Virus record (IMG/VR): IMGVR_UViG_3300011116_000735
Span: 1 to 27,225 of that record
Source of the DNA: a virus
Length of the DNA stretch: 27,225 bases
Reading direction: 5' to 3' (one strand)
Positions 1,876 to 16,100 of this stretch are shown here, one piece after another (the stretch's first letter is position 1; each line of letters opens with the position of its first letter). The translations under genes were made by a program, and so were the position numbers. A model generated the notes under the pieces. The model was not told where the DNA came from. It searched no databases and worked only from the letters and a program-made list of their open reading frames with translations.

Positions 1876-4800
1876 CTATATTCCTATTGCCATCCAGCGG
1901 ACCAGCGCAGCGGTAGCGTTAGCCGTTCTCACAACTATAGATGTCGTATTTGCCGTTATGATCGATACGAAGTTACCAGAACCGGTGGCACCCGTGGTAT
2001 TACTGGTGGCAGTCGCTGACCATATCGCTGTCGGGAAGGCAAGACCGGTGTTTGTTGAGAACACCACGTTGCCCACAGACGTGTTTGATAGAACAGTACC
2101 CCACTGCAAGATCATACCTCCAGGCAGCGTGGTGTAACCGTTACCTGTCGCCGCATAGGTGCTCGTGTTAACTACGAAGATGTTAGCCGTCGAGTTAGAT
2201 ATCTTAATTGAGCCGGCTGTTATCTGTGTATTAGCTGTAGCGCCTGTTATTGTGAGCGCCGTTGAATTAACTATATTGTTAGACGCACCGGCAGTACCTG
2301 TTATAAGAGAAACAGTAGCAGTGCCCGTATTAGTCTGAAGAGTTATAGATGGAGAGCCGGTAACTGTAGAGTTGCCAGACGTCATGCCGGTAGAAGAAAC
2401 CACCGTGCTCGTATTGCCGAACGCACCGGTGCCCGTGTACAGACCAATCGCAGCCGTGCCTGTGTTTGACAGCACGTTAACATTGGCCGCGATAGCTGTA
2501 GTAGTATTACCAACGTTTAGATCTACTGCGAGTTTGTCAAAGCTGAAGTAGCTAACACCGCCGAATACACCAGAGTCATTGAACTGAACATTTGTGTTTG
2601 CACCTGCCGGTGCTTGTGAACCGGTGTAACCTATTGAGCCAGTAAACCCGACTGAGCCAGTGAAGCCTACAGAGCCAGTGTATCCAACAGAGCCAGTATA
2701 GCCGACATTGCCTTGGGATCCAGTAAAACCAACACTGCCCTGAGAGCCAGTATAGCCCAGAGAGCCAGTGAATCCAGTGGCGCCCTGTGAGCCAGTATAA
2801 CCAGTTGTTCCTTGAGATCCAGTATATCCGAGTGAGCCAGTATAACCAACAGATCCTGTATATCCAACTCCTCCCTGAGAGCCGGTGTAGCCTATACCGC
2901 CAGTAGTTATAACACCAGCAGTGGTGTTGACACCAAGAACAATTCGCTGTAAGCTTACTGTAACGGCTGAGCTATCGCCCTGGGCGTATAATCTTACACT
3001 GCCAGAGTCTACGTTTGAAGTAAATACACATACTGGATATGTATTATTGCTGAGAAGAATTCCGTATTCTGTAGAGTTAACATCAGATCCGTCTGAATTG
3101 AGAAGTATCTCAGACGACTTATATCTAGAATTAACTGTATCTTTAGAAGACGTGATATATTTTATCGTAGAAGTGCTGGTTAAAGCTAGCGTATCGATCA
3201 GAGTTACTGCAGTTGTTACTGAAGTATTAACGACGTTGAAGATATTTGTATTAGAACCAACGCCAACTGAGCCGGTATATCCGGTGGCACCTTGAGATCC
3301 TGTATATCCCGCACCCTGAGATCCGGTATAGCCCAGAGAGCCAGTAAATCCAGTGGTGCCCTGAGATCCTGTATATCCCGCACCCTGAGATCCGGTATAG
3401 CCTAGAGAGCCAGTAAATCCAGTGGTGCCCTGAGATCCTGTATAACCCAGCGAGCCTGTAAATCCAGTGGTGCCCTGAGATCCAGCGTAGCCCAGAGAGC
3501 CAGTATAGCCTGTAGAGCCCTGAGATCCGGCGTAGCCAAGAGATCCTGTATAACCAGTTGAACCCTGAGATCCAGTATAACCAATGACGCCCTGAGATCC
3601 GACATAACCAACGGAGCCAGTATAACCCGTTGCGCCTTGAGATCCAGTATAACCAATGACGCCCTGTGAGCCGGTATATCCTAAAGATCCAGTATAACCT
3701 GTAGTACCCTGATCGCCCTGAGAACCAGTATATCCAGCAGATCCAGTATATCCCACTGAACCAGTATATCCAGTAGCTCCCTGCGAGCCGTCATAACCTA
3801 TTACACCCTGAGAACCAGTATAACCTACAGAACCGGTGTAGCCCGTAGCTCCCTGAGAGCCGTCGTATCCTATGACACCTTGAGATCCAGTATAACCTAC
3901 ATCTCCCTGCGAGCCAGTATAGCCAATAACTCCACGAGAGCCGGTATAACCTATGTCTCCCTGTGAGCCAGTATAACCTATGTCTCCCTGAGATCCAGCG
4001 TAGCCAAGCGAGCCCGTATATCCGGTAATACCAATCGAACCAGTATAACCAATGTCTCCCTGAGAGCCAGCATATCCTAGAGAGCCGGTGTAGCCGATAT
4101 CGCCCTGAGATCCTGTATATCCTATATCACCCTTAGAGCCAGTATATCCAATCACGCCCTGAGAGCCAGTGTAGCCGATATCACCCTTAGAGCCAGTATA
4201 TCCAATCACGCCCTGAGAGCCAGTGTAGCCGATAGACCCGGTATATCCAGTAGCTCCAATCGATCCAGTGTATCCTAGATCGCCCTGAGATCCAGTATAA
4301 CCAGTCGCACCCTGAGATCCGGTATAGCCCTGCGCGCCTCTGTTAGCGATGGCCACGATTATAGACGCGTCGCTCGCGAATCCGTTATAACCGTCGCCAG
4401 CAGATGATGAGAGTGTTACCGGTACTTCGATGTAAGAGTTGTCGTGAACAGTAATTGCAGCTGATACTGTCCAGTTCTGATAGCTGTTTGAGTCTGAAGC
4501 AGACTGTATGATGATCGTATCTGTGGCCTCGAGAAGAGCTAAGAAGATATCGATGTCTACTGACTGCGAGGTGAGGTGGTTTAGATTGATCTGAGTCGCG
4601 CTGCGCTGCGTAGCGTTATTCCATAGAATATATCCAGCGCCTGGGTTGACGTTGCTGGTAGAGGTTGTATTTGCGTAGTATGGATAATAGCTAGACGACA
4701 CACCGGCTGCGCCGGTATCACCCTTTGAGCCAGTATAACCAGTAGTTCCCTGAGATCCAGCGAAACCAATAGATCCCTGCGAACCGGTGTAGCCGATATT

Positions 4801-5892
4801 GCCGATAGAGCCGGTAAAACCTGTCGATCCCTGAGATCCAGTATAACCAATAGATCCCTGAGAACCGGTGTAGCCGATGTTGCCCTGAGATCCGGTATAA
4901 CCGACGTTGCCCTGCGAGCCAGCGTATCCTAGAGATCCAGTGAAACCAATGGATCCCTGCGAACCCGTGTAGCCTATTGCGCCCTGGGAGCCGGTGAATC
5001 CAAGCGAGCCAGCATATCCCGTGGCGCCCTGAGAACCAGTATATCCGACGCCCTGAGAGCCCGTATATCCAAGCGAACCTGTATAACCAGTATCTCCCTG
5101 AGAACCGGCGAAGCCAGTGGTACCGCGCGATCCCGCATAGCCGATAGACCCGGTATATCCAGTAGCTCCAATCGATCCCGTAAAGCCTATAGCACCTTGA
5201 GAACCAGCATAGCCGATCGATCCAGTATAACCAAGATTACCCTGCGAACCCGTATAACCGATAACACCCTGAGATCCAGTATATCCGATTGATCCAGTAT
5301 AACCAAGATTACCCTGTGATCCAGCGAAGCCAGTAGATCCCTGAGATCCGGTATATCCCGCTCCCTGCGAGCCAGAATATCCTAGAGATCCTGTATATCC
5401 GAGATCTCCCCTTGAGCCGACGTATCCCGTTACGCCCTGCGATCCGGTATAACCTAAAGAGCCAGTGTATCCAATAGAACCAGTATAACCCAAAGATCCG
5501 GTATAACCCAAAGATCCAGTGTATCCAATAGAACCGGTATAACCAACGCGTGTAGCCCAATATATTCTATTGCCATCTGTAGTTAATATCTGATCAAAAG
5601 ATCCAGTAGTGCCGTTAGCCGATATGTTTACAGCTGTGACTACGTTTGCTGTTATAGTATTGGATGACAGAGATACGATATTGGCAGCTGGAGCCGAAAC
5701 GCTGTTGCTTACGCTTACGTCGACATTATTGGCGCCGACGGCAAACACCGTGTTGCCGGTCGACACATACATGATGCCATCGGCCATGTTGATGGCTGGC
5801 TCGCCTGGCAGCGGTATGTTAGTTGTGTTTGGTACCTTACCAGATACCGACGTGCGCTTGAACTGCACCGGCACGTTGACGGTATTAGCCAT
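1876..5892 (-). CDS. Giant collagen-like tail fibre protein (1338 aa), three collagen segments, gp53-like C-terminus
   Basis: Order of parts: N-terminal ~116 residues (QFKRTSVSGKVPNTT, GEPAINMADGIMYVSTGNTVF), a module common at the N-termini of phage fibres and probably the attachment end; collagen block 1, ~117-397; globular insert 1, ~398-518; collagen block 2, ~519-877; globular insert 2, ~878-998; collagen block 3, ~999-1093; C-terminal part ~1094-1338 ending in GMILQWGTV...LVRWMAIGI, which resembles the gp53-like C-terminal domain of tail fibres. The Gly-X-Y repeats are mostly GYT GSQ GxI/GxT/GxL, with no proline in any block and four one-residue breaks. Roughly 240 triplets could form a stalk near 200 nm if fully triple-helical (inference). 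A Shine-Dalgarno-like AAGGAA precedes ATG 5892. The leader carries two palindromes and a perfect late promoter, and the glycosyltransferase gene diverges from it. Confidence 0.9.
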   Translation of the reverse strand: MANTVNVPVQFKRTSVSGKVPNTTNIPLPGEPAINMADGIMYVSTGNTVFAVGANNVDVSVSNSVSAPAANIVSLSSNTITANVVTAVNISANGTTGSFDQILTTDGNRIYWATRVGYTGSIGYTGSLGYTGSLGYTGSIGYTGSLGYTGSQGVTGYVGSRGDLGYTGSLGYSGSQGAGYTGSQGSTGFAGSQGNLGYTGSIGYTGSQGVIGYTGSQGNLGYTGSIGYAGSQGAIGFTGSIGATGYTGSIGYAGSRGTTGFAGSQGDTGYTGSLGYTGSQGVGYTGSQGATGYAGSLGFTGSQGAIGYTGSQGSIGFTGSLGYAGSQGNVGYTGSQGNIGYTGSQGSIGYTGSQGSTGFTGSIGNIGYTGSQGSIGFAGSQGTTGYTGSKGDTGAAGVSSSYYPYYANTTSTSNVNPGAGYILWNNATQRSATQINLNHLTSQSVDIDIFLALLEATDTIIIQSASDSNSYQNWTVSAAITVHDNSYIEVPVTLSSSAGDGYNGFASDASIIVAIANRGAQGYTGSQGATGYTGSQGDLGYTGSIGATGYTGSIGYTGSQGVIGYTGSKGDIGYTGSQGVIGYTGSKGDIGYTGSQGDIGYTGSLGYAGSQGDIGYTGSIGITGYTGSLGYAGSQGDIGYTGSQGDIGYTGSRGVIGYTGSQGDVGYTGSQGVIGYDGSQGATGYTGSVGYTGSQGVIGYDGSQGATGYTGSVGYTGSAGYTGSQGDQGTTGYTGSLGYTGSQGVIGYTGSQGATGYTGSVGYVGSQGVIGYTGSQGSTGYTGSLGYAGSQGSTGYTGSLGYAGSQGTTGFTGSLGYTGSQGTTGFTGSLGYTGSQGAGYTGSQGTTGFTGSLGYTGSQGAGYTGSQGATGYTGSVGVGSNTNIFNVVNTSVTTAVTLIDTLALTSTSTIKYITSSKDTVNSRYKSSEILLNSDGSDVNSTEYGILLSNNTYPVCVFTSNVDSGSVRLYAQGDSSAVTVSLQRIVLGVNTTAGVITTGGIGYTGSQGGVGYTGSVGYTGSLGYTGSQGTTGYTGSQGATGFTGSLGYTGSQGSVGFTGSQGNVGYTGSVGYTGSVGFTGSVGFTGSIGYTGSQAPAGANTNVQFNDSGVFGGVSYFSFDKLAVDLNVGNTTTAIAANVNVLSNTGTAAIGLYTGTGAFGNTSTVVSSTGMTSGNSTVTGSPSITLQTNTGTATVSLITGTAGASNNIVNSTALTITGATANTQITAGSIKISNSTANIFVVNTSTYAATGNGYTTLPGGMILQWGTVLSNTSVGNVVFSTNTGLAFPTAIWSATATSNTTGATGSGNFVSIITANTTSIVVRTANATAALVRWMAIGI
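2614..2898 (-). repeat. Collagen-like coding repeat, block 3 (~31 triplets)
   Basis: Nine-base units encoding Gly-X-Y, mostly GYTGS and GFTGS alternating with GSQ/GSV/GSL. The block ends at SQAPAGANT, where the first proline appears and the C-terminal domain begins. Confidence 0.85.
3293..3430 (-). repeat. Near-perfect 69-bp tandem duplication inside the fibre gene
   Basis: Copies at 3293-3361 and 3362-3430 differ at a single base (gcccag versus gcctag). Each encodes 23 residues and includes one GAGYT break in the Gly-X-Y phase. The identity exceeds what the protein repeat requires, so a recent duplication or gene conversion is likely. Confidence 0.85.
4127..4234 (-). repeat. Perfect 54-bp tandem duplication inside the fibre gene
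   Basis: Copies at 4127-4180 and 4181-4234 are identical. Each encodes 18 residues (six triplets, GYTGSKGDI and GYTGSQGVI). Synonymous sites also match, pointing to recent slippage or recombination. Confidence 0.88.
4702..5544 (-). repeat. Collagen-like coding repeat, block 1 (~93 triplets)
   Basis: Gly-X-Y triplets run from RVGYTGSIG to GDTGAAGVS. The block is proline-free, with Tyr/Phe-Thr in GYT/GFT triplets and two one-residue breaks (GAGYT near 5358, GVGYT near 5049). Some GYA/GFA units replace Thr by Ala. Confidence 0.85.
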
Positions 5893-5911
5893 ATGGCTCT
5901 TATTCCTTCTT

Positions 5912-5923
5912 GCTTATATAAGC
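5912..5923. promoter_or_regulatory. 12-bp palindrome GCTTATATAAGC in the fibre leader
   Basis: A perfect inverted repeat centred on TATATA. It lies between the predicted late start site (~5959) and the Shine-Dalgarno sequence of the fibre gene. As RNA it could form a 4-5 bp hairpin; as DNA it could bind a dimer. The function is inferred. Confidence 0.4.
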
Positions 5924-5933
5924 CCAGCCACCA

Positions 5934-5947
5934 GTCCTATATAGGAC
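5934..5947. promoter_or_regulatory. 14-bp palindrome GTCCTATATAGGAC beside the divergent promoters
   Basis: A perfect inverted repeat, also centred on TATATA, with its centre 23 bp from that of the first palindrome. It abuts the plus-strand CATAAATA element. As RNA in the fibre leader it could fold into a 5-bp stem with an AUAU loop. Confidence 0.45.
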
Positions 5948-5955
5948 CATAAATA
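5948..5955 (+). promoter_or_regulatory. T4-type late promoter match (CATAAATA) for the glycosyltransferase gene
   Basis: CATAAATA fits NATAAATA and is the only plus-strand match noticed. The predicted start is near 5961, giving a leader of about 27 bases with TTGGA ahead of ATG 5988. Confidence 0.55.
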
Positions 5956-5964
5956 ACTATGTCA

Positions 5965-5972
5965 TATTTATA
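5965..5972 (-). promoter_or_regulatory. T4-type late promoter, perfect TATAAATA, for the collagen-like fibre
   Basis: The minus strand reads TATAAATA, identical to the T4 late consensus. The predicted start is near 5959, leaving a leader of about 67 bases that carries both palindromes. It opposes the plus-strand CATAAATA at 5948-5955. Confidence 0.7.
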
Positions 5973-5987
5973 CTATTGGATTTTACA

Positions 5988-8636
5988 ATGATATCTGTCG
6001 CTATAGTTGATACAATCGGGTTGGTCTACGACGGCTCTACACTGTCCAAGAGAGGGCTCGGAGGCTCAGAGTCCGCTGTAATCCTTATGTCCAGAGAGCT
6101 GGCAAGGCTTGGATTCGACGTCACGGTCTACAACAACTGCGAGGACTCTCAGGCTAGACCCGGCGAGTACGACGGGGTTAAGTTCAAGCCGTTCAGGGAG
6201 TGCCAGGGCCAGATCCACGACGTCGTGATATCGTCTAGAACTGTGCTCCCGTTCTGTCCCGAAGAAGAGTACAGGCACTTCACAAATACTCCAGCGCCGT
6301 ACTCTACGTTCGACGGGCTCCGTAAGGCGAAGCTCAAGATCCTGTGGCTTCACGACACGTTCTGCGTCGGAGACCACCTCATCGAGAAGATGGTCTTGGC
6401 CGGTCAGATCGACGAGCTGTTTACTCTATCAGACTTCCACACGTCGTACATAGCGAACTGCGACCACGGCGCCAAGCGAAACTTCGAGGTGCTGAAGAAC
6501 AAGATCTTTATGACTCGTAACGGCGCGGTAAACCACAAGGACTGGGTAGACGTCTCTGCCAAGGATCCAAACCTCTTCGTCTACAACGCATCAGTCACCA
6601 AGGGAATGATCCCGCTCGTGACCAAGATATGGCCGGAGCTGAAGAAGAGAATTCCTACCGGTAAGCTGGTGGTGATCGGTGGGTTCTACCGCTTCAGGGA
6701 CGGCGCGCCTCCGGACAAGCAGGAGGAGGACTGGCATCGACTGAGGAAAGAGTATGAGGCCAAGGGTCTTGACATTCACTTTACCGGTGTTATCCCCCAG
6801 CACGAGATCGCCGACATACTGACTAGGGCCTCTTACTTCCTCTACCCAGGCGCATTTCCAGAGACGTTTGGAATCTCCACGCTCGAGTCTCTACTGTACA
6901 ACACACCGCTCGTGACGTGCCGGTTCGGCGCCGCTGAGGAGACAGCCATCGAGCAGGCCTGCTACCTGATGGACTACGCCATAGAGCCAAACGGTCTGTT
7001 CCCCCACATCAACAGCGACGCCCAGATCTCTAAGTTTATAGAGCTAGCTCATCGCGCATATAACGACAGGTATCTACACCAGCAAAAGATGTACGCCTGC
7101 AACGCGGTGAGAGACATCGCTGATTGGTACTCAGTGGCCATGCAGTGGAAGCAGCACATCTACAAGAAACTGGGTATGTATCTGCCTGTGGACGAGTATC
7201 GCATGGTCAGGAGTATCAACGATCGAGTTCATCGAGTCTACAGCCGCAGGTTTTCCAACCGCGAGGAGTGGGGAGTAAGCAAGAGCGCTGAGCAGCATAT
7301 CGTGGTGGTCACACCTTTCTACAACGCTAAAGACTACATAGCGAAGTGCGTGGAGTCTATCGCCGCTCAGGACTACGATAACTGGTCGATGATACTCATA
7401 GACGACAACTCTACCGACGACGGGTTTGACGTCGCGTTTAGATATGTAGACAGCCTGCCGCAGAAAATTAGAGAAAAAATTACGATCAGGAGAAACAATC
7501 AGAACGTCGGCGCGGTTCGAAATCAAGTTGAAGCTATTCGACGACTCGAGTCGACTGACATAGTGATGCTGGTAGACGGAGACGACGCGCTGGTAAACGA
7601 CCCGCACGTGTTTGATCTATACAACAACGTATTTCACCAGGGCGCTGAGTTCTCATACGGTTCCTGCTGGTCTATGGCTGACAACATCCCTCTTATCGCT
7701 CAGCCATACCCACCTGAGGTAAAGCGCGACCGGTCTTATAGAAAGCATAAGTTTAACTGGGGCATGCCTTACACACACCTGCGCGTATTCCGCAAGAGTC
7801 TAATCGATAAGGTAGATGACTCTGAGTTTCAAGACGATAACGGCGAGTGGCTTAAGGCCGGAGGTGACAACGCCACGTTCTACAGCTTAATCGAGCAAGC
7901 CAAACCATCGAGAGTATTAGCGTGTCCTGACGTCGTGTATCTCTACAACGACAAGAATCCAATCAACGACTACAAGGTAAACAGCGCGGAGCAGCAGAAG
8001 AACATGAAGTTCGTGATATCAGACGGCTTAGAGATGAAGATTACAAGCCCAACAGACGTCAAGAAGATACTCATCGCCATTCCTACTGCAAGATACATCG
8101 AGCCCGAGACCTTTAAGTCGGTATATGATCTGCAAGTTCCTGACGGGTATGAGACTGAGTTTCAGTTCTTCTACGGCTACAACGTAGATCAGGTAAGAAA
8201 CCTGATAGCCAGCTGGGCTCAGCGCTACGACTACCTACTCTCGGTAGACTCAGACATCGTGCTGCCTAGAGACTCGCTGAAGAAGATGCTGAGCCACGAT
8301 AAGGATATAGTCTCAGGAATGTATATACAGAGAATTCCTGGAACTCACTCGCTTGAGCTGTATGGACCTAGCGGCCGGCTGACGTACGATCAGCTAAAGG
8401 ACAAGGGTCTCATGGAGATCGTGAGCTGCGGCTTCGGCTGCGCTCTGGTGAAGGGAGAGGTGTTTAGAGAGGTGGGTTACCCACAGTTCGTGTATCACTC
8501 AGCGCTAGACCACAAGGACACGATCTCAGAGGACACGGACTTCTGCCACAAGGCTCGAGCCAAGGGGTTCAAGATCTGGACAGACACGAGCATAAAGTGC
8601 GCGCATAAGGGCACGACTTGGTTTAACGTCGACTAG
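5988..8636 (+). CDS. Three-domain glycosyltransferase fusion (882 aa)
   Basis: Domain 1 (~1-420) is a GT-B, GT4-like transferase: an N-terminal glycine-rich loop (RGLGGSESAVILMSREL), then FPETFGISTLE with the E-x7-E pair at E292/E300. Domain 2 (~437-680) is a GT-A, GT2-like transferase: VVVTPFYNAKDYIAKCVESI, LIDDNSTDDG and a DGDD acidic motif at 530-533. Domain 3 (~692-882) is a second GT-A-like unit: ILIAIPTARYIEP, an SVDSDIVLP acidic motif at 754-756, then SCGFGCALVKGEVFREVG and SEDTDFCHKARAKGF. ATG 5988, with GGA 7 bases upstream, is preferred over an in-frame TTG at 5976. It is the only plus-strand gene in the window, flanked by structural genes on the opposite strand. Sugar donor and acceptor cannot be read from the sequence; modification of virion fibres, or of the host surface, is possible. 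Confidence 0.88.
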   Translation: MISVAIVDTIGLVYDGSTLSKRGLGGSESAVILMSRELARLGFDVTVYNNCEDSQARPGEYDGVKFKPFRECQGQIHDVVISSRTVLPFCPEEEYRHFTNTPAPYSTFDGLRKAKLKILWLHDTFCVGDHLIEKMVLAGQIDELFTLSDFHTSYIANCDHGAKRNFEVLKNKIFMTRNGAVNHKDWVDVSAKDPNLFVYNASVTKGMIPLVTKIWPELKKRIPTGKLVVIGGFYRFRDGAPPDKQEEDWHRLRKEYEAKGLDIHFTGVIPQHEIADILTRASYFLYPGAFPETFGISTLESLLYNTPLVTCRFGAAEETAIEQACYLMDYAIEPNGLFPHINSDAQISKFIELAHRAYNDRYLHQQKMYACNAVRDIADWYSVAMQWKQHIYKKLGMYLPVDEYRMVRSINDRVHRVYSRRFSNREEWGVSKSAEQHIVVVTPFYNAKDYIAKCVESIAAQDYDNWSMILIDDNSTDDGFDVAFRYVDSLPQKIREKITIRRNNQNVGAVRNQVEAIRRLESTDIVMLVDGDDALVNDPHVFDLYNNVFHQGAEFSYGSCWSMADNIPLIAQPYPPEVKRDRSYRKHKFNWGMPYTHLRVFRKSLIDKVDDSEFQDDNGEWLKAGGDNATFYSLIEQAKPSRVLACPDVVYLYNDKNPINDYKVNSAEQQKNMKFVISDGLEMKITSPTDVKKILIAIPTARYIEPETFKSVYDLQVPDGYETEFQFFYGYNVDQVRNLIASWAQRYDYLLSVDSDIVLPRDSLKKMLSHDKDIVSGMYIQRIPGTHSLELYGPSGRLTYDQLKDKGLMEIVSCGFGCALVKGEVFREVGYPQFVYHSALDHKDTISEDTDFCHKARAKGFKIWTDTSIKCAHKGTTWFNVD

Positions 8637-8875
8637 AAGGTACCGTCGTCGATTCTTCTGACGACATAAGTGTGCGTGGTATTGCTGTACACCAGCACTC
8701 CGCCGTCTACCTGATCTGAGGCGTCTACGTCGGCCAGAGAAGCCATGTTGTTGATCTTAAGCGACGCCGGATTGTTCTTCAGCTCTAGAGCCGGCTGAGT
8801 CGGCGGCGAGTTGAGAGACCCAATGTTGGAGACCTTGATCCTAGACGTCTGACGTATAGTCGCCTTAATAGCCAT
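8633..8875 (-). CDS. Small phage structural protein (80 aa)
   Basis: The protein starts MAIKATIRQTSRIKVSNIGSL and contains NNPASLKINNMASLADVDAS, then DGGVLVYSNTTHTYVVRRI. The SLADVD...DGGVLVY pattern recurs in small structural proteins and fibre segments of marine T4-like phages, often beside the next upstream gene's family. Its exact role is unknown. The start overlaps the preceding stop as TGATG, so translation is probably coupled. Its TAG stop overlaps that of the convergent glycosyltransferase gene in a shared CTAG. Confidence 0.7.
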   Translation of the reverse strand: MAIKATIRQTSRIKVSNIGSLNSPPTQPALELKNNPASLKINNMASLADVDASDQVDGGVLVYSNTTHTYVVRRIDDGTF

Positions 8876-9213
8876 CAGTGAGTTACTCTCGGGGTTACAG
8901 TTACTATACCCTCTACTATTCTCGTTATAGTGTTTGACGCGTCGGTGAGCTTCACGTCGTATACGTAGCGCCCATACTCTAGATTAGAGGTCTGGTCGGC
9001 GCTAAGCGAGAGGGTCAGAACTCCAGCGGCAGTATTAGTCCCGGTGTTTGCGGTAAACACGGCAGCCGCGTCTGTCGAGCTGTACCACCTGCGTATCTCA
9101 GCGTTGGCGGTGTAGGCGGCGAGATCGATAGGGTCGTTGTTCTCGTCGGTCAGGTCTATCTGCGTGGTGAACGTCGTGCCCTGATCTACGTTGATATTAG
9201 CTTTTGTAGCCAT
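8875..9213 (-). CDS. Small beta-sandwich phage structural protein (112 aa)
   Basis: Motifs: INVDQGTTFTTQIDLTDENN near the N-terminus, IDLAAYTANAEIRRWYSS, LTLSLSADQTSNLEYGRYVY, and a C-terminal IVEGIVTVTPRVT. This layout is seen in small Ig-like or baseplate-appendage N-terminal-type proteins of many tailed phages, where they accompany fibre genes. The length suits a single domain without a stalk. It starts 2 bp after the stop of the repeat-fibre gene and has no strong Shine-Dalgarno sequence, so it probably depends on upstream translation. Role inferred: virion accessory or adaptor. Confidence 0.7.
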   Translation of the reverse strand: MATKANINVDQGTTFTTQIDLTDENNDPIDLAAYTANAEIRRWYSSTDAAAVFTANTGTNTAAGVLTLSLSADQTSNLEYGRYVYDVKLTDASNTITRIVEGIVTVTPRVTH

Positions 9214-9215
9214 GT

Positions 9216-10649
9216 TTAGACCGTGATCGATGTCCTGTGAATCTTGGCGACTATAGTAGTGTTAGACGTTGGCGCGCACTGCAGGTTAAAGTTGCCGCCA
9301 GAGACTGTGGCCGTGAACGTTCCCATCAAGGCGCCGTTGTTCATCACGCCGTACTCCGTGATGTAGCCAGTACTGCCGTCATGAACTCCGAGAATCTTGC
9401 TGATCTGGTATCCGGTGCTGTTCGCCAGCTGGACTAGATACTCAGCAGATCTGTATAAAGCGACGGCGAAGGAGTCTACAGTCTGCGTCGAGGTATTGGC
9501 GAAAGTATAGTTGTTTACCGCCGTAACGCTTATAGACCCAATGTTTAGAGTCTTAGAGACGTTGTTATTAGACGTAAACGCTATGAAGCCATATGTAGAG
9601 TTACCGAGCTTGTAGGTGTCGTTCTGAACTGGTATCAAATCGCCGTTTGCGATAGTCGTTCCAGTATATGTAGTCGTGCCGTTGACGTATAGGTTACCGA
9701 CGACACTTAGATTTCCAGCTACGTTAGCGTTCTGAGTAACCGTAAACATCGCGCCTGAGACGGTAACGTTCGCGTTAAGCGCTGTGTTTCCGGATACTGT
9801 TAGCGATGTTAGGCTGGCGTTTCCGGAAACGCTCAGGTTAGCTATAGAGGCGTTGCCAGATACCGTGATGTTGTTTGAGAATGTAACTAGGTTTGAGAAC
9901 GTAGCGTTGCCCGTTACAGCCAGCGTGTTCGAGAGACTGACGTTACCCGTCACAGTCAGCGTGTTCGAGAGACTGACGTTACCCGTTACAGCCAGGGTGT
10001 TTGACAGGCTTACGTTACCGGTTACCGCTAAAGTATTTGCAAGCGAGACGTTGCCTGTTACTGAGAGAGCGTTGGACAGCGAGACGTTGCCTGTTACCAG
10101 CAGAGTGTTTGACAGGGTGACGTTGCCTATAGCTCTCACCGTGTTGGCGAAGTAGGCGTTGCCGGCCACGTTGGCCGTGTTTGAGAAGTTTACGTTGCCT
10201 GTGACTAAGAGAGTGTTTGAAAGGCTGACGTTACCCGTTACAGACAGGGTGTTTGAGAAGCTGACGTTTCCTGTGACCAGCAGAGTGTTTGACAGAGCTA
10301 CGTTGCCGACAGCCGTCACGTTGTTCTGGAAAGCCGCGGTGTTTACCACCTGGATCCAGCTGTTCACGGTGACGTTTGAGTTGAACAGGGCGTTTGATGA
10401 GAACGTGGCGTTGGAGGATATAGTTATTGTGTTCGACGTGGAAGTGTTGCCGCCGCGCAGGTTGCCTGTAACAACCATGATGTTTGCTGAGAAGTAGCCG
10501 TTCACCACGCTGTTGCCTGTGGTGACTGACCCGCCGCTGGAAGCGTCAGCGGTCAGCGCGTTGGAAGATATAATTCCAACGATCTGATTGGTTCTCTCCA
10601 ACCAGGTGCCGAAGCTCTGAGAATTAGCAATGGGAGTTAGCGTTATCAT
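9216..10649 (-). CDS. Repeat fibre protein with 12-residue beta repeats (477 aa)
   Basis: The N-terminus (ITLTPIANSQSFGTWLERTN) is a probable attachment domain. It is followed by at least a dozen 12-residue repeats of the form GNVSLSNTLAVT (with LLVTGN, LSVTGN and AYFANT variants), then a looser VSGNAS region. The periodicity suggests a trimeric beta-helical stalk. The C-terminal ~110 residues (VDSFAVALYRSAEYLVQL, ITEYGVMNNG, GTFTATVSGGNFNLQC) form a globular domain that also occurs inside the collagen-like fibre. The start overlaps the previous stop as TAATG. It is unusually rich in Asn-x-Ser/Thr. A tail or side fibre is the best call; attachment site and receptor are unknown. Confidence 0.82.
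   Translation of the reverse strand: MITLTPIANSQSFGTWLERTNQIVGIISSNALTADASSGGSVTTGNSVVNGYFSANIMVVTGNLRGGNTSTSNTITISSNATFSSNALFNSNVTVNSWIQVVNTAAFQNNVTAVGNVALSNTLLVTGNVSFSNTLSVTGNVSLSNTLLVTGNVNFSNTANVAGNAYFANTVRAIGNVTLSNTLLVTGNVSLSNALSVTGNVSLANTLAVTGNVSLSNTLAVTGNVSLSNTLTVTGNVSLSNTLAVTGNATFSNLVTFSNNITVSGNASIANLSVSGNASLTSLTVSGNTALNANVTVSGAMFTVTQNANVAGNLSVVGNLYVNGTTTYTGTTIANGDLIPVQNDTYKLGNSTYGFIAFTSNNNVSKTLNIGSISVTAVNNYTFANTSTQTVDSFAVALYRSAEYLVQLANSTGYQISKILGVHDGSTGYITEYGVMNNGALMGTFTATVSGGNFNLQCAPTSNTTIVAKIHRTSITV
9895..10310 (-). repeat. 36-bp coding repeats in the fibre gene
   Basis: Tandem 36-bp units encode the 12-residue repeat. Units at 9921-9950 and 9957-9986 match base for base over 30 bp; others diverge at synonymous and hydrophobic positions. 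The boundaries are approximate. Confidence 0.8.
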
Positions 10650-10876
10650 TAAGCCTTATTCCTCAGCAGGTCTAATATCTCTGCGATATTCTGCTTTATT
10701 TCTGTTACTTCTCGGTTAAGTCTTACGTTGTCTTCCATTATTCTAGACATGTTAAGTCTTCGATCACGCTCCTCGCGATATTTATCAAGACTACGAGTGT
10801 CAACCGTGAGCACGGCCTTAGAATCTGAGCTCTTTATTAAGTCTTTTCTGTCTCTTATTCTAAAATACTCTGGCAT
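10649..10876 (-). CDS. Small coiled-coil protein in the structural operon (75 aa)
   Basis: A highly charged N-terminus (MPEYFRIRDRKDLIKSSDSK) is followed by DTRSLDKYREERDRRLNM, then a predicted helix whose Leu/Ile/Val spacing (NVRLNREVTEIKQNIAEILD) fits a coiled coil. Similar short proteins with a KYREERD-type motif occur in structural gene blocks of T4-like marine phages, without a known function. ATG 10876 follows the upstream stop as TAACATG, and the stop overlaps the next start as TAATG, so it is coupled on both sides. An oligomerisation or assembly helper is possible; that is inference only. Confidence 0.75.
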   Translation of the reverse strand: MPEYFRIRDRKDLIKSSDSKAVLTVDTRSLDKYREERDRRLNMSRIMEDNVRLNREVTEIKQNIAEILDLLRNKA

Positions 10877-10877
10877 G

Positions 10878-13115
10878 TTATATCTGCAGCGCCACGCAGC
10901 GTATGTTGTTCATGATCGGAATTACTATAGAGTTGTTAGATATCGGCACGACCTTAACGGCGAAGGTCTTGTACGTGTCGAATACCACGTCTGAAGAGTT
11001 TACGTATCTAACCACGTTGTTGTTTCTGTCATATAGGAACGCGCTGGATCTAGTCTGGATTCCTGGTATATAACCAACCGTGACGTTCGACGACGTGAAG
11101 GTGGCGTTCGAAGATATAGTCATGGTAGAGTTATTGGTTATACCAACTATCTGTCTGACGTTAAACTTAGTCGTTGTGTTATCAGCGAGATATATGAACG
11201 AGTTGTTGGTATACTTTGACGTATCGGCTACAGATATAGTGGTGTTTGAGTGAGTCACACCGGCCGTTACGTCTACCATGACTGAAGTAGGCAGTCCATA
11301 CTGCAGCTCTACTATGTCGCTGCGGTTGATAGACGAGCTGAACAGCGCGTATGACGTAGTGGATTCGGTAAGCTCTGACCAGTCCTTTGAGGCGAAAGAG
11401 TCTGAGTCCGCGCCGTTGAGGAACTTGCCGTAGACCTTGAAGTTAGATCCAACAGGCCTGTACGCTGACATGTATAGGATCAGATCTTCGGCGTCCTGCT
11501 TGTCGGCCAGCACTACGTTCTTGCAGACATAGCGGGATGCGGCGTAGTAGCCGTTACCCAAGCTCTCGTTGAACAGCGTAGAAGCTGCCACCACCGCGTT
11601 GGCAGACGACGTCGCACCAACCACCGTGGTGTTGCTCACCGCGAAAGAACCGACAATGTCGTTTACCCTGAGATACGAGCTGTTCGCGAAGTCTACTATA
11701 CCAGTGGCAGATCCCTGAGTCACCAGCTCTCCGGCGACGAATGAGCTGTTCGTGTTGGTAAGCGATAGGTAGTAGCCAGTCAGCTGCGCCTCTGCTGCCA
11801 CGATGTTTCTCGTTACCGTAGCGCTTGTTCCGAGAGTGTCGATGTACGGAGAGGTCAGGTTGTTAGAGGTGTTGATGACCGCGGTTACGATTAGGCTGTC
11901 GTTCGCCCCGATAGTACCGTTTGCCAGCGCGTTAGATCTAGACATGAGCAGGCGCTCGTTGTCCACGAACTCATACGGCAGGTTTACGGTAGTAGAAAGT
12001 CCTGAGGCGTCTTGCGTTAGATTATTAGCGTAGCCTCTGAAGGTAAACGTAGTGTTTGTCTGCAGCGGGCTGATGTAGTTGATCAGGGGCGTCAGGCTCT
12101 GATATGGCTTATTGGCGATTGAGAGAACATTAGCCGACGCGCCTGACGAGTACCCGAAAATAAACTGCCCTGTGCTGTTGGCAAAATTCAGAGATGTGTT
12201 TGCCAGACCCATTTCAACGACTAGCTCTTCCGGTTCGTCCGCGAAGTATGAGACTGTAGCCTCACAGATACCGTATAGAGCTCCATTTCCTAGAACTGCA
12301 CCGGCCACACAGCTATTATTACTAAACGTGGTGTTTGACGATACAGTAACTGCTGTCGAGTTAACCGTGGTCAGAACCTTTACCAGATTAAACGCTGACT
12401 TGTCTTGCTTAGAGATATAGATTAGATTGTTGACCGCGAAGTCTGATACAGCTGAGTTTGGAACCAGTATCAGCGAGTTGCTGTAAGTGGTTACGTTTGT
12501 TATCTTGTTGTTGGAGACGTATAGCGCCTCTTGATTTCTAAACGTGCCGTATCTGTCAGTGATCTGCACGAAGTCAGTTGGAGCCAGCTTGAATACTACG
12601 TTAGCGGTAGCAGACGTTATGCTGGTATTTCCCTTGAAGAAGTCTGCGACGTACAGACTATACTTCATGCTCTCCTTGAGAACTGGAGTAAACACCTGAT
12701 CGTTAGACGAGATGAATAGATTTCCCAGCTGGTTGTTGGTATAGATCGGCGCGCCCGTCGTGACGTCGTTCTCACCCAGCTGTGCTGTCCATACCAGATA
12801 CTCGTCGTTGCCGCCGTCTGGGATTAGCACTATGGCGTACTGCTTGTTGGTCTGCACGAATGGCAGAGAGTTGAAGTTGAACGTGGTGCTCGCCGAAGCG
12901 TCTCCGCTGACGTTAGTCTGCGAGGCTGTTAGATACGACGTGCCTCCAGCTATAACGTTCGAGGTTGGAAACCCATTCTCAACCGTGCGAATCTGCAGGG
13001 TTATGCCGTAGGTGCTCGAGACTGCCTTGAAGAAGATATCAATCTTTGAGAGAAATACGCCGTCAATGCCGTTGTTCGGCTGGAATACTAGAAATGTTTG
13101 AGCGATAGGTTTCAT
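10878..13115 (-). CDS. Baseplate/fibre structural protein, companion of the DUF4815-type protein (745 aa)
   Basis: The N-terminal ~170 residues (KPIAQTFLVF, GVFLSKIDIFFKAVS, GITLQIRTVENGFP, QYAIVLIPDGGNDEYLVW) form a beta-sandwich module. In other T4-like phages I recall this module as the C-terminal part of the long DUF4815 protein. The rest is Asn/Ser/Thr-rich and contains modules also seen in the gp7- and gp8-like proteins, for example GIVDFANSSYLRVNDIVGSF and HSNTTISVADTSKYTNNS. The start overlaps the upstream stop as TAATG. No catalytic motif is visible. It probably belongs to the baseplate periphery or a fibre, but no T4 counterpart can be named. Confidence 0.72.
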   Translation of the reverse strand: MKPIAQTFLVFQPNNGIDGVFLSKIDIFFKAVSSTYGITLQIRTVENGFPTSNVIAGGTSYLTASQTNVSGDASASTTFNFNSLPFVQTNKQYAIVLIPDGGNDEYLVWTAQLGENDVTTGAPIYTNNQLGNLFISSNDQVFTPVLKESMKYSLYVADFFKGNTSITSATANVVFKLAPTDFVQITDRYGTFRNQEALYVSNNKITNVTTYSNSLILVPNSAVSDFAVNNLIYISKQDKSAFNLVKVLTTVNSTAVTVSSNTTFSNNSCVAGAVLGNGALYGICEATVSYFADEPEELVVEMGLANTSLNFANSTGQFIFGYSSGASANVLSIANKPYQSLTPLINYISPLQTNTTFTFRGYANNLTQDASGLSTTVNLPYEFVDNERLLMSRSNALANGTIGANDSLIVTAVINTSNNLTSPYIDTLGTSATVTRNIVAAEAQLTGYYLSLTNTNSSFVAGELVTQGSATGIVDFANSSYLRVNDIVGSFAVSNTTVVGATSSANAVVAASTLFNESLGNGYYAASRYVCKNVVLADKQDAEDLILYMSAYRPVGSNFKVYGKFLNGADSDSFASKDWSELTESTTSYALFSSSINRSDIVELQYGLPTSVMVDVTAGVTHSNTTISVADTSKYTNNSFIYLADNTTTKFNVRQIVGITNNSTMTISSNATFTSSNVTVGYIPGIQTRSSAFLYDRNNNVVRYVNSSDVVFDTYKTFAVKVVPISNNSIVIPIMNNIRCVALQI

Positions 13116-16100
13116 TAGGCTACCATCTGTTCATATAGACTGAATTTGTTTATACTCAAATATTCGTCGTATGTCATCATCTTAATTCCAAGCATTCCAT
13201 AGTTTACGGTGTAGTAGCCATTCTCGTTCAGGCGCACTGCCTCGGGAACTACTTCCATAATCTCCTGAGCCATAACGCCGACGTACTCAACACTGCTCCA
13301 CAGGTACTGGAATTTATATAGCTTGATGCCGTTTAGAGTGTTGAGATATACTATATTTCTCTTCAGACGTGAGTCAGAAAACCAGTGAGGCGGCACGGAC
13401 GGGGTAACTATAGCTATATTCGGTCCAGGTACATATCCGGACGTCTGTATTGTTCTTGTCTGAGTCACTTCTGTCTGCACCAGCTGAGCCTGTCTTGTAT
13501 TTAGTATCGATCTTCCGTAAGACACCGACAGGCCGCTGCCGACGTATGTGGCAGTAGCCTGAGTGCTTATGGCGCTCTCGCCTTGAGTTAGATCTGAGAT
13601 GTCTAGAAGCTTGAACACCAGATCGCCGGTCCTGAACGTGCTGCTAGGTATCTGGAACACGCCGGATATAGACCCGTTGCTAGACGTAGTCATTGCGGCT
13701 CCAAGAGTAGGAGCGCATGAGAACGGGAGTGCCAGCGGCGACGTGTACTGATAGTACTCATTAGTAGCAGTACCATTATTATCATACACTGTGTTTACAA
13801 CCAGCGGCGCGTTGTTGTTATCGACGTAGATTCCGCTTACCGTGGTAACAGTACCGGTGTATGGCGTTATCTGAGCGCAGTAGTCTGAAACCGGTATGTC
13901 GTTGAAATAGGCGTAAACACGCGTGTTAGGCTTAAGGCCAGTAGCCTTGAACAGCACTAGCTTCTGCCTGACGTACGGGCTGATGCTTATGTCTGTAACG
14001 TATGTTCCGAGATTCAACTGGGTGTTTGACGTCGCGACTCCCAGAGTAGTTCCAGTCTGTACCTGCGACGATGTGGTTACCGCTGGTAGCTGAGAAGTAT
14101 ACCATGTAGTCTTCGGGGATCCCCATCCACCTGAGCTGGTGATGTACTGATCTGCCACGGGCTGAGCGCCAGGCACCACGTTAGTCGAGCTGCTCGTAGT
14201 AACCCAGTTGCTCCACGTCGTTCCCCAAGCCTCTTGAGCTTGAAGATTTACCCAGTTAGAGGCTAAGTCTAGATTGTTCACGACGTCAGGAGACTCGTAT
14301 GTGCTTGGCTGAGTATCACCCGGTGGGTTCAGAACTATGTTGCCCTTCCACTCATATACATTGCCCTCGATGCAGTTGTGATACTTAGAGGCATACGGCT
14401 GCTGCTGGAATAGAGCTTCGGTATGATCGATCGCGATCACGTCCCCTCTTCTCTTGAGACCAGCGCTGCGCGTCGTGTCCACGCGCATCAGTCTGTTTAC
14501 CTGCTCGAAGAACGGGCGCGCCTGGTTGGCGTTTGTATCTACAGCTATACGATACTGTGGGTCTAGAGTATTGCCGATGTCATGGCCTCTGAACGGCTCG
14601 ACCATAATACCATTCTTGAATCGATTCTGACCGGTGATATCGCTTCTGACCTGAAGGTTTGTCGTTGACTGCTCGAGTGCGTTGAGAGACGTGTAATACT
14701 CGACCTTACTGATTCTGTTGTCGAGAACGCCGATGTCTCCCATCGTATATCTCTTGGTCTGCGTCAGAGATATAGATACAGAGTAGTCATACCTGCCGTA
14801 GAGCTTGGCGAGATATGGCGTCAGCGTTGGGTATGGCGGGACGTCTAGAATTCCCAGAGTCATAGTGTTCGGGTCTTCGACCGGCGCCAGCGGCTGGAAC
14901 TCAGACATACCCTCCTTGATGTAGAGCTTGCCGTTGGTGTCTATGGCGACTCTGTCTCTTCTCGGGAGGTAGTGCGCTAGATCGGTGTTGAAGTTCTTAT
15001 TGGCAGATGGCAGGTAAGAAGCTGTTCTACCACCTGAGTTATATATCAGGAAGGTGAGAGTGGTAGCTGGATTCTCCGTGGCGTATCCAGCCGTAGTCGA
15101 GCCAGGAGTCGCGTCGTAGTTTGTCGCGACGCTGGCCGTATTGCTAGACATCGGTCTGAAGTCGATCGAGTCCCTGAGATCAAACACCGCGCCGGTCGAC
15201 GGAGACGTAAACTGCGGGATCTGAGTAGTAGATATCGCCTGAGTGTTAGACGTGTTGACGTCGTCTACAGGATACGAGTTAGCTGTGAAGAACGAGACGC
15301 CCGTACCAACTGTAGAGGTAAAGTTATCTACCGATACCAGCAGAAGAGCGTTCGACGGCAGCGCTACGTTTGACTTTAGATATGCCAGATCGTAGTGAGT
15401 GTCTCTCTGGCCGCTGTCCAGCGAGAATCGCGTTGTTACATCGGTGGCGGTGTTGGAGTAGCTGCCGTTAGTGCTGAGCCATACCTTATTGATCTTAAGG
15501 ACATCTGGAATTCCCAGACACCACGGTCCTGAAGTACCGCCAGCGTTATTAGATACGTTTATTCTCACTAGCGTGCTCTTCTTAACTGCCTTTGGAATAG
15601 GCGAGAGCGATGAGCCCTGGCGGTTCAGGTCATAGCACACCGACGTGCTGAACGAGGCGTTGACCACCGATCCTAGATTGAACGTAGTGGTGTTGCTGGC
15701 TATAGAAACGCTGCGTCTAGACCTGTTGACAAATGGGATTGGCAGTCCGGCTGGGAATGCCTCCTGATGGTTTAGACCAGCGCCAACTGCGCTGAACGCT
15801 GAGTTCACGGCTAGAAGCGTGTTATTGGTAACGCTTACTACGCGACGTAGATCACCTGCCACATATATGAAGTCACCGGCGCTATAGCTCGTTGTAAAGG
15901 TCGTAGAACTTCCAGTAACGTTTGTAGTCACATTAGATACCGAGACTGTTCCCGTGCTGTTTGTCGAGTATCCGTTGACCGTCGGTATGACGTCGAAGGT
16001 AGACGCCTCAACAGACGACAGCGTTCCAGTATAGAGAAACGTCTCGGTTCCAGTCGGAGCCGCCGCAGGTAGCGCTAGCGCCAGCGTGGCGTTAGCAGAG

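What the first reader, a model, noticed from the sequence alone, without database searches (positions are those of the whole stretch)
1876..8636. Hypothesis: a dedicated glycosyltransferase modifies a proline-free, threonine-rich collagen fibre
The collagen blocks encode no proline, the residue that normally stabilises triple helices, but place Thr in the third position of most GYT/GFT triplets. Glycosylated Thr in that position stabilises a worm cuticle collagen, and Thr in BclA spore collagen carries sugars. A three-domain glycosyltransferase is divergently transcribed from the same 95-bp region as this fibre. Together they could be a fibre plus its stabilising or masking enzyme.
Basis: inference. 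Interest (0 to 1): 0.7.

Follow-up and report, generated by a model that had tools for sequence, protein, structure and literature searches.

The report
Phage collagen fibre with dedicated glycosyltransferase
In a widespread group of uncultured T4-like viruses of bacteria, a collagen-like tail fibre with a strict repeating motif almost always travels with one particular multi-domain sugar-adding enzyme gene, so the virus probably coats its own collagen fibre with sugar chains.

Summary
Window 5892..1876 (-) encodes a 1338-aa tail fibre with 248 Gly-X-Y triplets and no Pro in them. Window 5988..8636 (+) encodes an 882-aa GT4+GT2+GT-A enzyme, divergent across 95 bp. I tested whether the pair is meaningful. 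Of 23 contigs of at least 50 kb with GYTGS collagen, 21 encode this GT, against 0 of 32 with GPx or GIQ collagens. In 44 T4-like contigs chosen by a baseplate gene, one has both and 43 have neither. Nineteen lineages keep the divergent arrangement (<600 bp), with T4-late-promoter-like motifs. The near-invariant unit is G-[YF]-x-G-S (905/917), with Ser from both codon families. Aromatic collagens with Thr but no Ser never carry the GT (0/103, against 34/103 with both). Some GT-linked collagens contain Pro. Best explanation: the enzyme builds a short, sometimes methylated, O-glycan on the fibre's collagen, with Ser the likelier acceptor. Glycosylation itself is untested.

The parts
1876..5892 (-). 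collagen-like tail fibre, 1338 aa
   Evidence: Pfam Collagen 328.7 bits; C-terminal PF21882 Gp53-like_C 37.6 bits
4695..5544 (-). first collagen block (about 95 triplets, fibre residues 117-399), proline-free, G[YF]xGSx hexads
3256..4338 (-). second collagen block (about 121 triplets, fibre residues 519-879)
2614..2901 (-). third collagen block (32 triplets, fibre residues 998-1093)
1879..2625 (-). C-terminal stretch with the tail-fibre domain Gp53-like_C
   Evidence: PF21882, E=3.3e-9, above cut-off
5965..5972 (-). TATAAATA, T4-late-promoter-like, reading towards the fibre
   Evidence: same motif in fibre direction in 16 of 19 divergent lineages, 2.6 expected
5948..5955 (+). CATAAATA, late-promoter-like, reading towards the glycosyltransferase (only + strand hit in the window)
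   Evidence: GT-direction motif in 9 of 19 lineages, 2.1 expected
5988..8636 (+). three-domain glycosyltransferase, 882 aa
5988..7187 (+). domain 1, GT-B fold, GT4-like, EX7E motif E292...E300
   Evidence: (Z about 27-28 to GT4 enzymes)
7293..7967 (+). domain 2, GT-A fold, GT2-like, DD 472-473 and DGDD 530-533
8055..8633 (+). domain 3, GT-A fold, Anp1/STIV-A197-like, DSD 754-756
8875..9213 (-). 112-aa protein, like an L-shaped tail-fibre assembly protein; sits beyond the GT in many relatives
   Evidence: synteny

Best explanation
The glycosyltransferase is a late-expressed, soluble, self-contained glycan builder whose main substrate is the collagen shaft of the neighbouring tail fibre. The most likely steps are as follows. 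One domain attaches the first sugar in O-linkage to the fibre chain within the hexad G-[YF]-x-G-S; the Ser is the likelier acceptor and Thr a possible second one. The other domains extend the chain by one or two sugars. In relatives a fused FkbM methyltransferase caps it. The dense sugar coat would replace proline/hydroxyproline as stabiliser and hydration layer of a proline-poor triple helix, and would also mask the shaft. Shown here: the genes, domains and motifs; specific co-occurrence and conserved divergent linkage; late-promoter-like motifs in both directions; strict constraint on Ser. Inferred: glycosylation itself, the acceptor residue, the order of the domains, and the stabilising effect.
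For: GT side: of 25 lineages (<90% identity) found by GT sequence alone, 18 have a G[YF]xGS collagen within about 10 kb, and six of the seven others end at contig edges. The control of GT4-only homologues has collagen in 2 of 29 whole records. Collagen side: 35 of 115 GYTGS loci carry the GT against 0 of 191 GPx/GIQ loci (p=3e-17); on contigs of at least 50 kb it is 21 of 23 against 0 of 32. T4-like background: 1 of 44 contigs has the GT and the same one has the motif. Arrangement: 19 lineages divergent with a gap under 600 bp and late-promoter motifs. An MAG contig shows the same layout. The globular parts of the window fibre have no match (E<=1e-4) in any of the relatives' loci, so what the paired fibres share is the collagen motif. 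Motif: 905/917 aromatic triplets are followed by GS, with TCN and AGY codons both used; GT presence is Ser+Thr+ 34/103, Ser+Thr- 4/38, Ser-Thr+ 0/103, Ser-Thr- 1/81. Catalytic motifs are intact and there is no transmembrane segment. Precedent: SgtA beside bclA3 adds GlcNAc to Thr or Ser of collagen repeats (PMC7157674).
Against: No modified peptide has been seen. All these viruses are uncultured fragments. Eight GYTGS fragments have neither this GT nor any GT2 hit yet keep the G[YF]xGS rule, e.g. 117/117 in L133, so the motif could be structural, or the GT could lie outside those fragments. Co-occurrence can reflect inheritance of one tail-fibre module rather than enzyme and substrate. Distance varies, and in 14 lineages the nearest collagen is not in the tight divergent position. 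In the window the FkbM domain is missing.
Confidence: 0.6

Rival explanations
1. The enzyme modifies host lipopolysaccharide or capsule to block superinfection, and sits in the host-recognition cluster next to tail fibres, as proposed for pelagimyophages.
For: Glycosyltransferases are common in the host-recognition cluster of pelagimyophages and were read as O-chain modifiers (PMC7029224); domain 2 resembles bacterial polysaccharide enzymes.
Against: It predicts linkage to tail fibres in general. Instead the family is tied to one collagen type and absent with GPx, GIQ or G[YF]TG(A/P) collagens. There is no membrane segment, and the promoter motifs are late-type.
Confidence: 0.17
2. G[YF]xGS is a purely structural solution for proline-poor triple helices, and GT and fibre are merely inherited together in one module.
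For: GT-less fragments keep the motif; Thr and polar residues in Y are common in bacterial collagens and thought to build hydration networks (PMC8968730).
Against: Linkage survives large GT divergence (mean identity 56%) and changes of order and orientation. Other aromatic triplets do without the Ser: only 18/287 in GPx/GIQ loci are followed by it.
Confidence: 0.15
3. The enzyme glycosylates virion proteins other than the collagen, for example the Asn/Thr/Ser-rich neighbouring structural proteins.
For: Mycobacteriophages glycosylate capsid and tail-tube proteins with their own enzymes (reported in PMC12363180); a Ser/Thr/Asn-rich repeat protein lies near (window 9216-10649).
Against: Those neighbours were not found beside the GT in most relatives, whereas the collagen is the recurrent partner.
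Confidence: 0.06
4. The enzyme glycosylates phage DNA bases.
For: T4-like phages are known for DNA glucosyltransferases, and phage GTs have been read that way (PMC12619734).
Against: Late-type promoters, fusion of three GT domains with a methyltransferase in relatives, and tight linkage to one fibre type do not fit; T4-like contigs without the fibre motif lack the enzyme.
Confidence: 0.02

Closest known systems
Clostridioides difficile SgtA / BclA3 (spore collagen O-GlcNAc transferase)
   Same: GT gene beside a collagen-like surface protein; GT-A enzyme shown to add GlcNAc to Thr (and Ser) of collagen repeats (PMC7157674).
   Different: SgtA is one GT-A domain plus TPR repeats and acts on GPT repeats; here three GT domains, and the marked motif is proline-poor G[YF]xGS in a phage fibre.
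Mimivirus L230 (collagen lysyl hydroxylase / glucosyltransferase)
   Same: A virus encoding a GT for its own collagen-like proteins, which are also low in proline (PMC9614988).
   Different: L230 glucosylates hydroxylysine and has a hydroxylase domain; no hydroxylase domain was found here, and Lys is rare in the fibre.
Chlorovirus PBCV-1 A064R and A111/114R (multidomain virion glycan enzymes)
   Same: Several transferase domains, in A064R with a methyltransferase, in one polypeptide building a virion-protein glycan (PMC9614988).
   Different: They act on N-glycans of the capsid protein; domain make-up differs; no collagen substrate.
Mycobacteriophage virion glycosyltransferases (Che8 gp110, Corndog gp38)
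   Same: Phage-encoded enzymes that glycosylate virion proteins and shield them from antibodies (reported in PMC12363180).
   Different: Capsid and tail-tube targets, not a collagen fibre.
Uncultured Caudovirales proteins A0A6J5T3W3 and A0A6J5M7M7
   Same: Same enzyme family, 44-49% identity over most of the length.
   Different: Annotated only as generic GT or FkbM proteins; no function or partner assigned in the annotation shown.

Membership tests
Collagen-like phage tail fibre | long Gly-X-Y repeats plus tail-fibre domains | tested here: met
   248 triplets; PF01391 328.7 bits; PF21882 above cut-off; tail-fibre PHROGs
Collagen-like phage tail fibre | forms a stable trimeric triple helix in the virion | not testable with these tools
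   no structure or virion data
GT4 (domain 1) | GT-B fold and conserved EX7E motif | tested here: met
   PF00534 E=5.7e-11; fold Z 27-28, rmsd about 3 over about 320 residues to GT4 enzymes; E292 and E300 invariant in 20 homologues
GT2 (domain 2) | GT-A fold with DxD-type metal motif | tested here: met
   PF00535 E=1.4e-23; TarS, SpsA, GalT1 folds Z 19-20; D530-D533 invariant
Anp1/A197-type GT-A (domain 3) | GT-A fold with DxD | tested here: met
   STIV A197 Z 20.8, rmsd 2.0 over 165 residues, Mnn9 Z 16.9; DSD 754-756; PF03452 below its cut-off in the window copy, above it in L011
Dedicated collagen glycosyltransferase (works like SgtA) | genomic pairing with a collagen-like gene | tested here: met
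Dedicated collagen glycosyltransferase (works like SgtA) | transfers sugar to the collagen repeats | not testable with these tools
   needs in vitro assay or mass spectrometry
SgtA family proper | single GT-A domain followed by TPR repeats | tested here: not met
   three GT domains and no TPR family in hmmscan
LH3/ColGalT-type tandem GT-A collagen enzymes | matching two-domain GT-A arrangement | tested here: inconclusive
   both domains align in order, but rmsd is 19-20 angstrom over about 330 residues
FkbM methyltransferase fusion | C-terminal Methyltransf_21 domain | tested here: not met
   absent in the window copy, present in L009 and L011

The most novel reading that the evidence does not exclude
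A phage collagen-glycosylation system: one multidomain enzyme recognises the sequon G-[YF]-x-G-S in a proline-poor triple helix and builds a complete, sometimes methylated, oligosaccharide on it, so that sugar replaces proline/hydroxyproline as the stabiliser of a tail-fibre shaft in a widespread group of uncultured T4-like phages.
Probability: 0.4. Interest if true: 0.78.

Novelty: new variant of a known kind. Interest (0 to 1): 0.62.

Why it matters
It turns a guess about two neighbouring genes into a specific, testable enzyme-substrate pair found in more than 30 distinct lineages, with a candidate sequon and a clear control set (aromatic collagens with Thr but no Ser). If true, it would be a phage counterpart of SgtA/BclA3 and Mimivirus L230, would suggest how proline-poor collagens are stabilised, and would question the habit of reading all glycosyltransferases in T4-like host-recognition clusters as LPS modifiers.

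Tried and rejected
Thr-in-Y as the marker of GT-linked collagens: rejected, because GPT-rich and G[YF]TG(A/P) collagens lack the GT. Proline-free as a requirement: rejected. Tyr as acceptor: unlikely, since Tyr and Phe interchange freely, 429 to 488. Cultured phages as a test bed: no full-length GT relative among 50,697 records, and the collagens of S-CRM01, S-CAM7, CRP-114, P19250A and two huge uncultured phages lack the motif. LH3/ColGalT1 fold similarity: the domains match one by one but not in arrangement, so it was not used as evidence. A literature search for the motif strings found no phage paper. Bacterial genomes: only one full-length relative, on a phage-like MAG contig, so no bacterial operon helps.

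Full report
WHAT IS THERE. The window is a 27,225-bp IMG/VR virus fragment that carries a T4-like tail and baseplate module; a gp6-like baseplate-wedge protein is among its genes. The fibre ORF runs 5892..1876 on the minus strand, 1338 aa. It has 248 Gly-X-Y triplets in three blocks with two globular inserts. None of the triplets contains proline; Thr is in Y in 100 of 248 and in 76 of 92 aromatic triplets. The C-terminus matches the tail-fibre domain PF21882 above its cut-off, and the N-terminus weakly matches tail-fibre families. The enzyme starts at ATG 5988 and ends at 8636 on the plus strand. Domain 1 is GT4-like, domain 2 GT2-like, domain 3 a further GT-A domain, with catalytic motifs in place (EX7E 292-300, DGDD 530-533, DSD 754-756) and no transmembrane stretch. 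An AlphaFold2 model of the whole enzyme has mean pLDDT 84.8. The two genes are divergent with a 95-bp gap that holds one T4-late-promoter-like octamer in each direction.

DO THE TWO GENES BELONG TOGETHER? STARTING FROM THE ENZYME. Relatives were found by GT sequence only. The four closest (72% identity) all have a GYTGS/GFTGS collagen divergent from the GT, and those that extend far enough have the same 112-aa gene on the other side. A script that finds Gly-X-Y runs showed such collagens beside most full-length relatives, in various orders and orientations; GT4-only homologues, which served as control, almost all lacked them. Whole-record checks put a collagen about 9 kb from the GT in one clade that seemed to lack it, and found a collagen match in only 2 of 29 control records. 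After clustering at 90% identity in the GT4 domain there are 41 GT lineages with mean pairwise identity 56% and minimum 37%. Nineteen have the collagen divergent within 600 bp, 14 within 5 kb otherwise, two within 10 kb, six none. Some of these 41 came from collagen scans; counting from the same table only the 25 lineages reached by GT sequence, 18 have an aromatic-GS collagen, six end at contig edges, and one (L059, a shorter and most distant enzyme) has only a short run without aromatic residues.

STARTING FROM THE COLLAGEN. A pattern scan for GYTGSxGYTGS gave 72 distinct contigs that were then searched whole. A profile search found a strong GT match in 46 of them; a further 22-bit hit is not counted. 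Among contigs of at least 50 kb the count is 21 of 23. Control collagens were fetched with GPxGPxGPx and GIQGIQG patterns. In loci of at most 15 kb the GT family occurs in 35 of 115 GYTGS loci and in 0 of 191 controls. In whole control contigs of at least 50 kb it is 0 of 32; the four listed hits are at most 72 bits and cover one domain or less. In 29 of the 35 linked loci the nearest collagen is upstream on the opposite strand, most within 600 bp.

IS IT JUST T4-LIKE BACKGROUND? Contigs anchored on the baseplate gp6 protein were searched whole: 1 of 44 has the GT and the same one has the G[YF]TGS pattern; 43 have neither. Both features are rare in T4-like phages and come together. In the divergent regions the motif NATAAATA occurs towards the fibre in 16 of 19 (2.6 expected from shuffles) and towards the GT in 9 of 19 (2.1 expected). 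That these are late promoters is inferred from the known T4 consensus. A MAG contig assigned to a gammaproteobacterium shows the same divergent layout with a 110-bp gap; it is probably a phage.

WHICH RESIDUE? In GT-anchored loci, 905 of 917 aromatic triplets are followed by Gly-Ser. Ser uses TCN 683 and AGY 222 times, so it is kept by selection rather than by copying alone. Tyr and Phe swap freely. Thr is present in 722 of 917 but is replaced by Gln (96), Ala (27), Val (23) and Asn (17), and by Ser only 9 times. In 24 loci, P(Ser | aromatic before) is 0.99 and P(Ser | other) 0.04. In control collagens only 18 of 287 aromatic triplets are followed by Ser. Two further scans separated the features. 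Over all scans, loci with at least six aromatic triplets carry the GT as follows: Ser+Thr+ 34/103, Ser+Thr- 4/38, Ser-Thr+ 0/103, Ser-Thr- 1/81. Ser against no Ser among Thr-rich collagens gives p=4e-12; Thr adds something within the Ser group, p=0.009. These p-values treat loci as independent, which related contigs are not. So Thr alone does not predict the enzyme, and the G[YF]xGS unit does. Within the Ser+ class the limit of 15 kb and contig ends depress the rate.

HOW IT MOST LIKELY WORKS. A soluble enzyme with three transferase domains, in relatives fused to an FkbM methyltransferase and in others split so that domain 3 is a separate ORF, is what one expects for building a short glycan directly on a protein. 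PBCV-1 A064R and A111/114R are experimentally studied viral examples of such multidomain enzymes (PMC9614988). SgtA, whose gene lies immediately upstream of bclA3, adds GlcNAc to Thr and also Ser of collagen repeats in vitro (PMC7157674). Mimivirus L230 glucosylates viral collagen. Mycobacteriophages glycosylate virion proteins (PMC12363180; the primary paper is not held). By analogy the phage enzyme should decorate the fibre shaft during late infection. A sugar coat could stabilise a helix without proline, as proposed for BclA hydration networks (PMC8968730), or shield it; nothing here separates the two.

WHAT SPEAKS AGAINST. The motif also occurs on fragments of 24-116 kb in which no GT2 domain was found. 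These may be incomplete genomes or may show that the motif is structural. Module inheritance can mimic enzyme-substrate pairing. No biochemical data exist. A report on pelagimyophages reads such enzymes as LPS modifiers (PMC7029224). I put 0.6 on fibre glycosylation and about 0.4 on Ser of G[YF]xGS as the main acceptor.

NOVELTY. The parts are known kinds (collagen fibre, GT4, GT2, GT-A, FkbM). The pairing, its breadth, the motif and its tie to the enzyme were not found in the papers searched, which hold only open-licence PMC text. Hence a new variant of a known kind.

Noticed in passing
window 5948-5972; L098 and L108 divergent regions: The two late-promoter-like octamers lie head to head and in some relatives overlap into a near-palindrome (TATTTATAAATA type), so one element may fire both ways or the two may exclude each other.
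   Followed up: partly
L090:6393-7160 (-): A cytidylyltransferase/HldE-like nucleotidyltransferase (by eye) sits between fibre genes and GT in the 151-kb relative, hinting at a phage-made nucleotide sugar as donor.
   Followed up: no
L090:2886-3716 (-) and 7262-11549 (-): A further small GT2-like gene and three repeat proteins with FG-GAP/integrin-like SVAVGSGRIVVGA repeats lie in the same module (by eye).
   Followed up: no
L445 (S-CAM7) 8891-14332: A cultured cyanophage has a Thr-rich GATGATG collagen gene followed by a group-1 glycosyltransferase and a 2OG-Fe(II) oxygenase, possibly another phage collagen-modifying set.
   Followed up: no
window fibre residues 177-180, 281-284, 837-840, 860-863: The collagen blocks contain short GAG or GVG interruptions that shift the triplet register, as in natural collagen breaks.
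   Followed up: no
window 9216-10649 (-): Structural protein with about 36-bp tandem repeats (SNTLxVTGNVSL) that matches bactofilin; the repeat number differs in relatives.
   Followed up: no
window 13115-17701 (-): Large DUF4815 protein ending in a Peptidase_S74 (endosialidase-type) chaperone domain.
   Followed up: no
L011:9505-9892 (-): The collagen ORF next to the GT appears frameshifted in two near-identical contigs; real or assembly error is unknown.
   Followed up: partly
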